DNA of 64,000 nucleotides, taken from NCBI GenBank assembly GCA_938084565.1, contig CALKEU010000005.1, forward strand, positions 131,715 through 195,714. Reading direction: 5' to 3'. How positions within the stretch are numbered: the first letter of the stretch is position 1; every line of letters starts with the position of its first letter. Both the position numbers and the translations under genes were made by a program. Source of the stretch: Candidatus Kapaibacterium sp. GTDB taxonomy: Bacteria; Bacteroidota; Ignavibacteria; Kapaibacteriales; HRBIN21. The notes beneath the pieces are model-generated. The model was given only the letters and a program-made list of their open reading frames with translations. It was not told the DNA's origin and searched no databases. Below, in pieces: positions 20,197-52,171 of this stretch.

Positions 20197-22635
20197 TCAG
20201 CTCTGCGACGTATCAGCCTCGGGTAAGTCGGGCAGTGGACTCTCTTGGACATTGTCGCTGCTCGGCTCAAAATGTGTGTGGCACTGAGGGCAGCGCCAGA
20301 GGCTCTGCCATTGTCCGTTGTGCCACTGACCCTGCTCCTCCACGAAGGGATGCCCGCACTGAGGGCAGTGAAAGGGGATTGGGCGATAGCGCCGGATGTG
20401 GCGGCAATCAGGGTAACGTGAGCAGCTCCAGAAGCGGCGTTTGCGCCGATCCATGCGTTCGATCAGCTCACCCTCGCCGCACTCCGGACACCGAACTCCA
20501 GAACTCAAAGGGCGTGTGCCCGTGCATTCGGGATAGCGGGAACAACCGTAGAAGGCCCCGTACTTACTCTGTCGCTGAACCATAGGAGCCCCGCAGATGG
20601 GACAGCGGATGTGCTCCAGAAGGGGTGCAGGTTCCTTTGGGGGTTTCGGCATGGGTTGCGTAGCTCCGCACGAGGAGCAGCGCAGATAGCGCTTCCCGCG
20701 TCGGGAGCGCTCAACCGTCATCGAGCTGCCACAACGGGGACAAGGGAAGAGAGAGCCCATCTGTTGGCGAGCTCGCTCGAGAGCTTGGCGGAAGGGGGCG
20801 TAGAAGTTGGCCAACACCGTCTCGTAGGCCAATTGTCCTTCGGCAATGCCATCTAACTGCTCCTCCATGGTTGCGGTAAAGCCGACGGTGAAGATGTCGG
20901 GGAAGAAGCTCACCAGGATCTGATTGACTTTGCGCCCCAGAGGGGTCGGCAGGAGGTACCGCTGCTGGCGCTGGACGTAGCGGCGTTCGAAGAGCGTGCT
21001 GACAATGGTAGCATATGTGCTAGGCCGCCCAATGCCCTTTTCATCCAGTTCCTTGATGAGCGTGGCTTCTGTGTAGCGCGGTGGAGGTTTGGTCTGGGAA
21101 GCCTTTGTCACAAGGTCGGACAGCACAAGCTGGAGACCTTCGGCGAGCCCGGCGGGGAGCTTCTGGCGCTCTTCTTCGGCTTCCTCTCCCTCGGCAAGCT
21201 CAGTGTAAGCCCGCAGGAAGCCGTCGAAGAGAATGACGCTGCCACTGCTTCGGAAGAGGAAGCCATTGCCCGCAATGAGCACGGTTGTACGTTCCACTTC
21301 GGCGGGCGCCATCTGCGAGGCCAGGAAGCGGGTGTAGATGAGCTCGTAGAGGGCTGCCATGTCCTTGGGCAGATAGGGGCGCACACGCTCGGGAGTGTAC
21401 TCCAGGTGGGTTGGACGGATAGCTTCGTGGGCATCCTGGACATGGGCTGAGCGGCTGCTATACTGCGGGGGTTCCGGGGGGAGGTAGTCCGTGCCGAAGA
21501 GCTCAGCAATGGTGCGCCGGGCGGCCAGCTGCGCTTCATGGCTAATACGCATGGAGTCGGTGCGCATGTAAGTGATGAGCCCGACGGGGCCCTCGCTGCC
21601 CAGAGTCATCCCTTCGTACAGTTGTTGGGCCAGGCGCATAGTCTGTCGTGGGGAAAGCCCTAAGCGGCGGGATGCCTCCTGCTGCAGCAGACTGGTAGTA
21701 AAAGGTGGAGGGGGCGAGCGCTTGAGACGGCGTTTGCGCAGCTCGACAATGGTCCATCCTGCGCAGGCGCGTATGGCCGCGGCGACTTGCTCAGCCTGAG
21801 CTTCCGAGCGAAGGTAGTGCCGAGCCTGGAGCGCTTCCGGAGAATGCTCATGAGCCGATCCTTCGGGATTGCGCAGCGGTTGCCCCTCGTACTCGACCAG
21901 CTCTGCCCAGAGGATCTCGCCCGAGGGAAGGGTGAATTGGGCCCGAAGAGTCCAGAAGGGGATGGGTTGGAAGCGCTCGATGAGGTCTTCCCGTTCGCAG
22001 ATGAGGCGAAGCGCCACAGATTGGACTCGTCCTGCCGAGAGAGCATGGGCAACCTCGTGGGCCAGGATATCGCTGAGCCACGGAGAGACCTCATAGCCGA
22101 TGAGCCGATCCATGACGCGCCGAGCTTGCTGGGAGAGCACGAGGGCTTCGTTGAGCTCCCGCCATTGCGCAATGCCTTGCTCAATACCGCTGCGGGTGAT
22201 TTCGTGGAAGAGAACCCGACGGATGTTGGCATTGTGCGGACGGAGTTCCTCGGCAATATGCCATGCAATGGCTTCCCCTTCGCGATCGGGGTCGGTTGCC
22301 AGCAAAATCTGCTGGGCACGCTGGGCCAGAGTCTTGAGACGCTGCAGAATGTGGCGTCGCGTAGGCAGAATCTGGTACTGTGGGCAGAAGCCACCGGCAA
22401 TGTCGACTCCGAGACTGTGTTCGGGCAAATCCTTCACGTGCCCGAGGGAAGCCTCCACTACATAGCCTGGGCCAAGATAGCGCTCGATAGTACGGGCTTT
22501 GGCCGGGGATTCGACGATAACAAGGTGCGGGCCCGCCGTGGATGCAGTATCGGCCGATGGGGCGAGCCGAGCTTTCCGAACGGTTGCGTTCAGAGAGCGT
22601 GAGCCGGCGGAGCGACCTGCTACGTTTCGGGCCAT
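20197..22635 (-). CDS. topA: DNA topoisomerase I (type IA)
   Basis: Relaxes negatively supercoiled DNA through a 5'-phosphotyrosine intermediate. The 812 residues comprise a TOPRIM domain ([25 protein letters not shown]), the gate domains with the catalytic tyrosine in [11 protein letters not shown] (about 356), and four C-terminal zinc-ribbon-like repeats (CPRCG, CPICG with YPECTG, CPECG with YPDCRH, CPQCG with CPQCH). The ATG at 22635 is chosen; an upstream in-frame ATG at 22701 adds 22 poorly conserved residues. It is divergent from the T9SS metalloprotease. Confidence 0.93.
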
Positions 22636-22727
22636 GACCTCTGGCCGTACTGTTGCTCGACAATAGACGCTCAGAAGCCCCAATCTTGTGAAAGTGCTCA
22701 AGCCCTGTGGGCTGCCGCCGTGAGGTG

Positions 22728-41628: not shown

Positions 41629-43577
41629 CCCTGAGTGCCTTCTGCCTTGCCGCGTGCCAGCTGTGGTGGAACGCCGAGGCATACTTCAACACCGCCTACA
41701 ACATGCACCGCTTGATGGGGGAGGTGGAGGAGGAATTCAGCTACTACGACGATACGCGGCGCACGCAGCGCCCGCGCCTCCTCGTACCGGATCCCTCTAT
41801 TCTGACCCAGACCCAAGCAGGGGACGTGCTGCCCTTCCTTCGCGAGTTTGTCATCGAGCCGCCGAAGTTGCAGCCTGTGCAGAAGAGGCTGGACTCGATT
41901 CTGCAGAAGGGCTCGAAAATTCTCGCCTTTCGGACGCGCTCGGATTTTGTCGATGATGCTCTCCTGCTCATGGCGCAGGCGTTCTTCTACCGCGGGGAGT
42001 GGCTCCCGGCGCAGATCAAGTGCCAAGAGCTTCTGGAGCTCTTCCCCGATGGCAAGCTAGCCCCCGATGCGCAACTGCTACTGGCTAAAGCCTCCCTGAT
42101 GCAGCGGAAGTATGCCTTAGGGCAGAAGGCCCTCTCTCGGGCTATTGATATTGCCTGGAAGCGGCGCCGTTACGATGTCCTCAGCGAAGCTTTCCGCTTC
42201 CAAGCAGAGTTAGCGCTCAGCCATGGGGAGCTCGAAGCCGCTCTCCGACCCTACCGGCAGGCGGTGCTGCTTGCTCCGGATGGAGAGCTACGGGCCCGAT
42301 GGCAGTGGGAGGTGGGGGCCATCTACTACCGCGCCGGGCGCTTCGAAGAGGCAGCCGCTGCCTTTGCTGAGGTTGGGCGCTATCGGCCGACTCTTGTGGT
42401 CGAGTATGAGGCCCAGCTCTATCGGGCAGCTTCCTTGGCTCGGAGTGGGCGCTTCCGCGAAGCGGAAGCACTCCTGATGGAGCTCAAACGACGGCGGCGC
42501 TATGAACAATGGCTGAGTTATACGCTGGCTCAAGAGCTAGCCCTGCGGCGGATGATGGGAGCTGCTGAGGATAGCCTCCGCCGTCTCGAGCGTCAGGCAG
42601 ATTCAGTGCTGTCAGGCAATCCCGCCCTCCTGGCGGTGCAGTATGAGTACGCTCTTCAGCTGCTCGGCCGTGGGGAGTACCGGCAGGCACAGCGTCTCTT
42701 TGCTCGTGCAGCCGTTGCACGCTCGCCCGTCTTTACTCGAGCGCGCTACTACAGTGAGCTCTTGGCACGTTGGGAACAAGCTACGGCCACGCTCTCGGCG
42801 ATACGTGGGGTTCAGCCACAGTCACTTCCCGATAGCCTCCGAGCTCGCATCAGTGCTGCATACTATGACCTCGGGCGAGTTTACACCCAACTAGGGCGCT
42901 CGGATTCAGCTCGCCTGTTCTATCAGCGCTCTCTCGAAAGTGCCCCCGATACGGGGTTATATCGACCCCGAGCTCTCTTGGCGCTCGCTCTCCATACTCC
43001 TGTTTCGGCTAGTGCGGATTCACTACTTGAGGAACTTGCTGCATGCTGCCCGCAAACTCCTTACGGCCAAGAGGCGCAGCGTCTGTTGGGCTATACACCG
43101 GAGGCAATTATCGATACTGCTGCGGAGCTCTACGAATCTGGTACTCGCCTGTGGCGCATAGGAGAATACGGCTGGGCTCGCCAGCAGTTTCTCCGCATTG
43201 TGCATGAGTTTCCTACATCACCGTATGCGCCACGAGCACTCTATGCCCTCGGCTGGATGTATGAGCACCAGCCTCTACGGCAGCTGGATAGCGCCCTCTT
43301 CTACTACGAACTCCTTCTGCAGCGGTATCCAAGTTCTGAGTATGCCGCCGATATTCGGCTAAGCGTTGTCTATGCTCGCGCCTATCGCGAGGGGGTTGCC
43401 CCTGAAACACTCCTTCGGCACTATGGTACCCCACCGGCTTCTTCTGTTCCGCCTACCCCTTCCTCTCAGCCCATTTTAGAGCCTCCCCCATCCCCCTCCC
43501 CCGTTCTGCCTGATACAGCGCCAACCCCCGGGGGGTCGGAAGAGGCACCAGAAGGAGCTTCGCGGGGCAATCCGTAA
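41592..43577 (+). CDS. TPR-repeat outer-membrane lipoprotein
   Basis: A 661-residue lipoprotein with lipobox CLAAC (Cys about 22), a WWNAEAYFNTAYN segment right after it and many tetratricopeptide-like repeats (for example AQAFFYRGEWLPAQIKCQELLELFP and YDLGRVYTQLGRSDSARLFYQRSLES). The C-terminal 55 residues are proline-rich. Similar TPR lipoproteins in FCB bacteria include the T9SS factor PorW/SprE and BamD-like proteins; I cannot choose between these by eye. The start may be 41592 or 41601, both inside the end of the M61 gene. A hairpin terminator overlaps the stop. Confidence 0.8.
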   Translation: MVAMGYRVALPLTLSAFCLAACQLWWNAEAYFNTAYNMHRLMGEVEEEFSYYDDTRRTQRPRLLVPDPSILTQTQAGDVLPFLREFVIEPPKLQPVQKRLDSILQKGSKILAFRTRSDFVDDALLLMAQAFFYRGEWLPAQIKCQELLELFPDGKLAPDAQLLLAKASLMQRKYALGQKALSRAIDIAWKRRRYDVLSEAFRFQAELALSHGELEAALRPYRQAVLLAPDGELRARWQWEVGAIYYRAGRFEEAAAAFAEVGRYRPTLVVEYEAQLYRAASLARSGRFREAEALLMELKRRRRYEQWLSYTLAQELALRRMMGAAEDSLRRLERQADSVLSGNPALLAVQYEYALQLLGRGEYRQAQRLFARAAVARSPVFTRARYYSELLARWEQATATLSAIRGVQPQSLPDSLRARISAAYYDLGRVYTQLGRSDSARLFYQRSLESAPDTGLYRPRALLALALHTPVSASADSLLEELAACCPQTPYGQEAQRLLGYTPEAIIDTAAELYESGTRLWRIGEYGWARQQFLRIVHEFPTSPYAPRALYALGWMYEHQPLRQLDSALFYYELLLQRYPSSEYAADIRLSVVYARAYREGVAPETLLRHYGTPPASSVPPTPSSQPILEPPPSPSPVLPDTAPTPGGSEEAPEGASRGNP

Positions 43578-43603
43578 CTCGTTGGCAACCAACAAGTTAC
43601 TTT
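43574..43603 (+). terminator. Hairpin terminator after the ffh-TPR lipoprotein operon
   Basis: Inverted repeat GTAACT (43574-43579) with AGTTAC (43595-43600) and inner GTTGG/CCAAC around a CAA loop, with one C-A mismatch, followed by TTTC. The T tract is short. The hairpin begins inside the stop codon of the TPR lipoprotein. Confidence 0.55.
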
Positions 43604-43604
43604 C

Positions 43605-44056
43605 AAACCCGCTACCGACAGATTTCCGTAAATTGCGCTCCCGCATGTGGGCGCGAAGACCGGGCCGTCAGAAGCAGAACGAGTTGTCCGATGGTCGCGG
43701 GTGGCTGTCTGAGAAAGCAGGTAAGGGGAGTGTTTGCTCTCTACAGCGCTAGGGGGACCATTGGCAGACACCAGTTGTGGGAAGCTACAGGCGGACCGTA
43801 TACACAGGGCGTAGACGGCAAGGAGAGCGACAGAGCTTGGAGTCTGGTTTATGCGGCTTCCACGCGTCTTTGGGCGCTTCTCTTCCCTAGAGTTCCGCAC
43901 CGGAGCAGTGTGCGGAGCAATCATGGAACCACCCCCAATTGGCACGCGCAAAAGACGGCTGTGGAAGCTGTAGACCTCGTGTGATTGGGTACCCCGGGCC
44001 TCCTTGCCCGCTGGGTACCCATCACCGGGGCAAGTGAGAACCGCATCGGAGGCAGC
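43605..44056. other. 450-base gene-free region with extensive inverted repeats (candidate structured RNA)
   Basis: No credible protein gene lies here; open frames on either strand lack recognisable domains or ribosome-binding sites. Complementary blocks form a long arm: 43846-43852 with 43970-43976, 43856-43863 with 43961-43968, 43865-43871 with 43951-43957, and 43874-43877 with 43946-43949. Inside it is a 7-bp hairpin (43894-43900 with 43910-43916). Next to it is a second strong hairpin at 43981-44025 (13 pairs with one bulged T, plus an inner 5-bp stem). I could not match it to tmRNA, RNase P RNA or SRP RNA signatures. Orientation is unknown; plus is favoured slightly by the minus-strand terminator at its right end. 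Confidence 0.5.
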
Positions 44057-44092
44057 AAAAAATCAGAGGGCGTCCCGTGTGGACGCCCTCTG
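44057..44092 (-). terminator. Strong intrinsic terminator of the ATP synthase-sigma factor gene run
   Basis: Perfect 12-bp stem (44064-44075 with 44081-44092), five-base loop, then on the minus strand one A and six T residues (44062-44057). It lies 37 bases after the stop of the last gene. This is the clearest intrinsic terminator in the window. Confidence 0.9.
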
Positions 44093-50609: not shown

Positions 50610-52171
50610 GCAGGTCGGAGGTGCTGTTGCCGGAACTCGGTGCTGAAGCGTTGAAGAGCTTCATCGAGCCGCTGCGTTATCTCCGGCGTCAGATCTCGGG
50701 TGTCGGCGATAGCCTCCAGGATGTCCTGCCGGTGGAAGGTGCGCAGGTACTCGAGGAACTCCCGTTCGAACGTGGAGACCAGTTCGAGCGGGAGCTCGTC
50801 GAGCCAACCGTTGGTTGCCGCATAGAGGATAGCCACCTGCTCCTCAACGGGCATCGGGTGGTATTGCGGCTGCTTGAGGATTTCCACTAGGCGAGCGCCG
50901 CGACGCAACTGCCGTTGCGTGGTCGGATCCAGATCAGAACCGAACTTGGCAAAGGCTTCCAGCTCACGATACATGGCCAACTCGAGTTTGAGCGGCCCCG
51001 CAACGCGCTTCATGGCCTTGATTTGCGCATTGCCGCCAACGCGAGAGACCGAAATCCCAACATTCATGGCCGGGCGGATTCCAGCGTTGAAGAGCCCGCT
51101 TTCGAGGTAGATCTGGCCGTCGGTGATGGAGATGACATTCGTCGGGATATAGGCGGCCACATCGCCAGCCTGGGTTTCAATGATGGGCAAGGCGGTCAGA
51201 GAGCCACCGCCGAGCTCATCGCTGAGTTTTGCGGCGCGCTCGAGTAACCGGCTGTGGACGTAGAAGATATCGCCGGGGTAAGCTTCCCGGCCTGGTGGAC
51301 GGCGCAGGAGGAGAGAGACTTGTCGATAAGCTGCAGCCTGCTTTGAGAGGTCATCGTAGACAATCAAGGCGTGGCGTCCGGTATCGCGGAAGTACTCTCC
51401 CATCGAAGCCCCGCAGTACGGAGCAATGTACTGCAGGGGGGCTGGATCGGAAGCATTGGCAGCCACGACGATGGTATAGTCCATGGCGCCGTACTCCCGC
51501 AGGGTTGCCACGACGTTGGCTACTGTGGAGGCTTTCTGCCCAATGGCAACGTAGATGCAGTAGACCGGCTGAATTCCGCGGCGCCGTGCTTCTTCAGTGT
51601 GCGTGTAACGCTGATTGATAATGGTGTCGATGGCCAGAGCTGTCTTACCCGTCTGGCGGTCCCCGATGATGAGCTCGCGCTGCCCGCGCCCGATCGGGAT
51701 CAGAGCATCGATGGCTTTAATGCCCGTCTGCAGGGGCTCTTTGACCGGCTGCCGGTAAATAACTCCGATGGCTTTCCGCTCGATAGGCAGGAAGTGTTTG
51801 GCCTGGATGGGCCCTTTGCCATCGAGCGGAAGACCGAGTGGGTTGACAACTCGCCCCAAAAGCTCTTCGCCGACAGGGACAGAGGCTACCCGGCCGGTAC
51901 GGCGCACGATGTCCCCTTCCTTGACGAGGCGGTCGTCTCCAAAGAGGATAACGCCCACGTGGTCTTCCTCTAGGTTCAGCACCATGCCAACGACCCCATT
52001 GGGGAATTCCACCAGCTCGGACATCATGGCCTGACGGAGCCCGTAGACACGGGCGACCCCGTCGCCGACCTGTAGCACGGTGCCTACCTCGTAGAGGTCC
52101 ACTTCATGTTCGAAGCCAGTCAACTGCCGACGGAGGATTGAGGAGATCTCTTCCGGTCGTAGCTCAATCAT
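50606..52171 (-). CDS. atpA: ATP synthase F1 alpha subunit
   Basis: Non-catalytic nucleotide-binding subunit. The 521 residues show P-loop GDRQTGKTA (170-178), the YVAIGQK segment, the [14 protein letters not shown] signature and a standard C-terminal helical domain. Length is normal. It is coupled to atpH upstream and hldD downstream by four-base overlaps. The beta and epsilon genes are not in this operon. Confidence 0.97.

What the first reader, a model, noticed from the sequence alone, without database searches (positions are those of the whole stretch)
43605..44056. Gene-free 450-base region with long nested inverted repeats: candidate uncharacterised structured RNA
In a genome packed with overlapping genes, this stretch has no convincing gene. 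Four complementary block pairs (7, 8, 7 and 4 bp) form a nearly continuous arm from 43846 to 43976, with an inner 7-bp hairpin, and a second 13-bp stem with a nested 5-bp stem follows at 43981-44025. GCCGTC (43664-43669) can also pair with GACGGC (43814-43819), linking the 5' part. It is flanked by terminators facing inward from both sides. I found no tmRNA T-arm, no RNase P GAGGAAAGTC motif and no SRP GGAA/AGCAG hairpin. A very divergent housekeeping RNA remains possible.
Basis: seen in the sequence. Interest (0 to 1): 0.7.

Follow-up and report, generated by a model that had tools for sequence, protein, structure and literature searches.

The report
Structured RNA outliving its dead gene
In a hot-spring bacterium, a gene for breaking down tryptophan has died, but the folded RNA formed by the gene's last stretch and the sequence just after it has been kept, which suggests that this RNA does a job of its own.

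Summary
The inverted repeats are real. The 3' part (43849-44035) is the most strongly folding 187-nt segment of the window (first of 1066; z -6.5). The 5' part (43580-43848) is not structured (z +0.9). No Rfam family matches; RNase P and tmRNA lie elsewhere in the genome.

In five congeneric hot-spring Kapabacteria the same slot, between a TPR gene and an ECF-sigma operon, holds an intact nbaC gene (3-hydroxyanthranilate 3,4-dioxygenase). The window genome has lost nbaC, kynureninase and tryptophan dioxygenase. Only a promoter-like 15-mer, about 28 codons of nbaC and its 3' UTR remain.

That remnant is not ordinary debris. In all six genomes the end of nbaC pairs with its own 3' UTR (helix H1), followed by a second long hairpin (H2). 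Evidence: compensatory changes (0/500 shuffles); synonymous conservation at the codons of the 5' arm; G-U pairs that mark the + strand. In the window, paired columns changed in 2 of 48 and a conserved loop in 0 of 16, against 12 of 28 elsewhere, while 8 of 25 amino acids changed.

So it is a genus-restricted structured RNA overlapping a coding end, kept after the protein was lost. Most likely it is a 3'-end-derived regulatory RNA; transcription and function are untested.

The parts
43623..43637 (+). Conserved upstream element TTTCCGTAAATTGCG, promoter-like (resembles a Bacteroidota-type TAnnTTTG -7 box)
   Evidence: Exact or 1-mismatch copy upstream of nbaC in 4 of 5 congeners (the fifth has a TTTCCGTAATTTG variant); one other 1-mismatch copy in the own genome, none in the others. 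Promoter role is inference.
43638..43852 (.). Replaced or scrambled body of the former nbaC gene: no detectable similarity to nbaC (about 490 nt from the 15-mer in congeners, 215 nt here), no excess folding
43854..43937 (+). Remnant of the nbaC C-terminus (LPRVFGRF..SLEFRT..VCGAIMEPP), protein function lost
   Evidence: Only nbaC-like match in the genome (E 2.5e-4); 8 of 25 invariant residues replaced, first Cys of the second CxxC lost, frameshift after MEPP
43852..43972 (+). Helix H1: 5' arm 43853-43877 (end of CDS) pairs with 43944-43971 (3' UTR); inner hairpin 43892-43900/43910-43918
43921..43938 (+). Conserved mostly unpaired block TCATGGAACCACCCC(C)AA, candidate seed or protein-binding loop
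   Evidence: 16 of 16 columns unchanged in the window against 16 of 28 elsewhere in H1 outside the core stems; synonymous sites invariant in congeners. Role is inference.
43975..44030 (+). Helix H2: long G+C-rich hairpin without U tract, strong covariation in its basal stem
   Evidence: helix 7: 6 of 8 pairs with double-sided changes; z -5.6
44064..44092 (-). Intrinsic terminator of the convergent anti-sigma/sigma operon (hairpin followed by TTTTTT on the - strand)
43574..43600 (+). Hairpin at the end of the upstream TPR gene

Best explanation
The region is the fossil of nbaC (3-hydroxyanthranilate 3,4-dioxygenase), lost together with the kynurenine pathway. Its 3' end encodes a structured RNA on the + strand, made of H1 (end of CDS paired with 3' UTR) and H2, which is conserved in the genus and has been kept under selection after the protein was lost. 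Shown here: gene loss, a shared two-helix fold, compensatory changes, synonymous constraint in the ancestral CDS, stem-preserving evolution in the window. Inferred: the RNA is still transcribed, probably from the preserved upstream element or by processing, and acts as a 3'-end-derived regulatory RNA, perhaps through the conserved loop ATGGAACCACCCC pairing with target mRNAs or binding a protein.
For: Synteny and intact nbaC in 5/5 congeners; window has only 43854-43937. Kynureninase and tryptophan dioxygenase absent only in the window genome. Fold z -6.5, -5.9, -6.1, -6.1 in four species with the same architecture; first of 1066 windows. Covariation: none of 500 shuffles reaches the observed value on any of five measures, pairing falls from 95.5% to 38-50% when slid. 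Synonymous differences 0.18 in the 5'-arm codons against 0.50 in the gene body, p 0.0007, while fourfold sites of neighbouring genes differ at 55-71% between species. With a structure derived from congeners only, paired columns changed 5/64 and unpaired 9/28 in the window (p 0.005); no purely synonymous new codons but 8/25 amino-acid replacements. 44 G-U against 6 A-C cells mark the + strand. Single copy per genome.
Against: Only six sequences, so the pair statistics are modest and the relatedness of species is not fully controlled. H1 shows one fully compensatory pair; most of its support is conservation. No transcript data. The gene body may have been deleted recently, in which case some tail conservation is simply lag. 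The window can form 56 of the 66 pairs of the congener structure. The split of H1 into stem, block and other columns is post hoc.
Confidence: 0.62

Rival explanations
1. The tail is only a 3'-end or insulation structure: H1 and H2 end or stabilise the nbaC (now TPR or residual) transcript and block convergent transcription into the ECF-sigma operon, with no trans function.
For: Convergent gene arrangement, long G+C-rich hairpins at the 3' end, an opposite-strand terminator next to it. The convergent arrangement is the same in all six genomes.
Against: H2 has no U tract. A terminator would not need a helix reaching ~100 nt back into the CDS, synonymous constraint there, or a conserved unpaired block.
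Confidence: 0.25
2. Plain pseudogene debris: the body was deleted recently, and the tail and promoter are unselected left-overs whose structure is inherited from the ancestor.
For: Pathway loss; the body has gone as a block rather than by scattered changes.
Against: Changes in the window spare stems and the loop block and fall elsewhere. This rival also leaves the genus-wide structure and synonymous constraint, measured without the window, unexplained.
Confidence: 0.12
3. A divergent 6S RNA: a long closing stem, an internal bubble and a terminal hairpin that would bind RNA polymerase.
For: Overall shape of H1; no 6S match anywhere in the genome.
Against: No match to any Rfam 6S family at this locus; the element is absent from other genera of the order although 6S is ancient, and it overlaps a conserved CDS.
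Confidence: 0.03
4. A short functional peptide is still made from the remnant (43851-43973, 40 aa).
For: An open frame exists.
Against: 8 of 25 invariant residues replaced, a zinc-site Cys lost, frame shifted, no synonymous-only changes; no Pfam or NCBIfam match.
Confidence: 0.02

Closest known systems
sRNAs from mRNA 3' ends and CDS-overlapping sRNAs (MicL within cutC, DapZ at dapB, SdhX; review PMC9438474)
   Same: RNA encoded by the 3' end of a coding gene with conservation beyond the stop codon. [quoted passage not shown]
   Different: Here the end of the CDS itself forms half of a long helix with the 3' UTR; the host phylum is Kapabacteria; the protein-coding part has been lost in one species; no transcript or chaperone is known.
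nbaC / 3-hydroxyanthranilate 3,4-dioxygenase (TIGR03037, PF06052)
   Same: Ancestral gene of this locus, intact in five congeners.
   Different: In the window only ~28 codons remain, with replaced key residues.
6S RNA (RF00013)
   Same: General shape: long stem, bubble, terminal hairpin.
   Different: No sequence or covariance-model match; genus-restricted; overlaps a CDS.

Membership tests
nbaC (3-HAO) | Full-length cupin domain plus C-terminal zinc/iron CxxC pair | tested here: not met
   Only residues 144-172 align; CKxC reads GAVC; the family scan of the remnant finds nothing. It is a remnant of this family.
Conserved structured RNA | Same fold in several species with compensatory changes beyond shuffles | tested here: met
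3'-end-derived or CDS-overlapping sRNA | Conservation at the 3' end of a gene reaching past the stop codon | tested here: met
3'-end-derived or CDS-overlapping sRNA | Discrete stable transcript | not testable with these tools
   No RNA-seq available
3'-end-derived or CDS-overlapping sRNA | Target regulation by base pairing or protein binding | not tested
   Candidate loop 43921-43938 only
6S RNA | Match to an Rfam 6S covariance model | tested here: not met
RNase P, tmRNA | Match to Rfam model at this locus | tested here: not met
   Both are elsewhere in the genome
Intrinsic terminator | G+C-rich hairpin directly followed by a U tract on the + strand | tested here: not met
   H2 has no U tract; the scan does not report H2 and finds a terminator with a T run only on the - strand next to it

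The most novel reading that the evidence does not exclude
A protein gene caught turning into an RNA gene: an ancestral dual-use locus (enzyme plus overlapping structured RNA) has lost the enzyme, together with its pathway, while keeping its upstream element and the RNA, which acts in trans.
Probability: 0.35. Interest if true: 0.78.

Novelty: new variant of a known kind. Interest (0 to 1): 0.6.

Why it matters
It offers a natural experiment that separates the RNA role of a coding-gene 3' end from its protein role: five species keep both, one keeps only the RNA part. If the RNA is expressed, this would be a clear case of a non-coding RNA gene arising from a protein gene in bacteria, in a phylum for which I know of no described sRNAs.

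Tried and rejected
Known RNAs: no Rfam match in the window region or in five related loci; no tRNA or tmRNA here. Whole 450-base RNA: rejected because 43580-43848 is unstructured. Mobile or repeated element: rejected, single copy per genome, and the middle segment has no copy elsewhere in the genus. Wider distribution: hits in other genera are nbaC coding homology with broken H1 and H2. The 33-nt hit in G032 (L008) is not at an nbaC gene and was taken as chance. Minus-strand RNA: disfavoured by G-U against A-C counts and weaker folding. Alternative frames: no family matches. Papers linking Kapabacteria with kynurenine: none found; a search for sRNAs derived from bacterial pseudogenes gave no clear precedent.

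Full report
Observation. Segment 43849-44035 folds at -94.9 kcal/mol with z -6.5 and is the strongest of 1066 tested windows on both strands (next best -19.5 against -27.0 kcal/mol below shuffles). The 5' part 43580-43848 has z +0.9. No Rfam family matches; RNase P and tmRNA are elsewhere in the genome, and 6S is not found in it.

What the locus was. A search of relatives found matches in five congeneric genomes. In each, the slot between the TPR gene and the anti-sigma/ECF-sigma pair holds an intact gene of 171-176 aa that is 3-hydroxyanthranilate 3,4-dioxygenase, nbaC (TIGR03037 and PF06052). The genus is a hot-spring Kapabacteria lineage that includes HRbin21. The window genome, rated 100% complete, keeps only residues 144-172 (window 43854-43937). 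Kynureninase and tryptophan 2,3-dioxygenase are absent from it and present in the other five (kynureninase in G003 only as fragments below the cut-off, one of them at a contig end), while NadA is present in all. The kynurenine pathway has therefore been lost, and nbaC is a pseudogene. The former gene body is unrecognisable in the window and has no copy elsewhere in the genus. The upstream 15-mer TTTCCGTAAATTGCG survives; it occurs at nbaC in the congeners and almost nowhere else in these genomes.

What the tail is. The last ~30 codons of nbaC and its 3' UTR form the same two-helix fold in the species tested (z -5.9, -6.1, -6.1). H1 pairs the codons for QLPRVFER with the 3' UTR across the stop codon; H2 is a 56-nt hairpin with no U tract. 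On the six-sequence alignment 95.5% of cells pair, none of 500 shuffles reaches the observed value on any of five measures, and sliding the partner strand drops pairing to 38-50%. Covariation is strongest in the base of H2 (6 of 8 pairs); H1 has one fully compensatory pair (CG to GC in G004). The alignment was fitted to this structure, so these counts lean towards it. Two further lines of evidence do not rest on that covariation count. First, in the five intact genes (window left out) the synonymous differences fall from 0.50 in the body to 0.18 in the codons of the H1 5' arm and 0.16 at the very end, while fourfold sites in neighbouring genes are near saturation, 55-71% different. Second, G-U cells outnumber A-C cells 44 to 6, which points to the + strand as the RNA.

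After the gene died. In the window, columns that are invariant in the congeners changed in 5 of 64 paired and 9 of 28 unpaired positions when the structure is taken from the congeners only (p 0.005). With the conserved stems and the loop block separated, changes are 2/48 in stems, 0/16 in block 43921-43938 and 12/28 elsewhere (post hoc). Both stem changes keep pairing through G-U. The protein is not what is kept: 8 of 25 invariant residues are replaced, a metal-site cysteine is lost, the frame shifts, and no codon shows a purely synonymous change.

Distribution. The tail is single-copy in each of the six genomes. In other genera of the order the model finds only the nbaC coding sequence, with H1 and H2 broken, and in several of those genomes nbaC is followed directly by an amidohydrolase gene. 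The structure therefore probably arose in this genus, in or after the move of nbaC to its present position.

Interpretation. The evidence supports a structured RNA that overlaps the end of nbaC and has been kept after loss of the protein. The closest known kind is sRNA from mRNA 3' ends, including CDS-overlapping cases such as MicL in cutC and DapZ at dapB; the review PMC9438474 notes that those with promoters inside the ORF persist when the overlapping gene is silent. A regulatory RNA with the loop ATGGAACCACCCC as seed or binding site is the mechanism I favour. A terminator or insulating 3' structure is the main rival. Transcription is untested, and this is the main gap.

Noticed in passing
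window genome G000 against G001-G005: The upper kynurenine pathway genes tested (tryptophan dioxygenase, kynureninase, 3-HAO) are missing only in the window species; two NadA-like genes remain.
   Followed up: yes
G000:C12:13128-13142 (L150): Second near-copy (1 mismatch) of the nbaC upstream element TTTCCGTAAATTGCG in the own genome, the only other one found.
   Followed up: no
window 50709-50895: Strongly folding segment (z -4.1) inside the atpA-like gene on the - strand, next in rank to the tail in the folding scan.
   Followed up: partly
window 22269-22455: Strongly folding segment on both strands near the 5' end of the long - strand ORF 20197-22701, where long ORFs overlap on both strands.
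   Followed up: no
L021, L022, L023, L027: In other Kapabacteria nbaC is directly followed by an amidohydrolase gene (PF04909 in L022), an arrangement that the window's genus does not share.
   Followed up: partly
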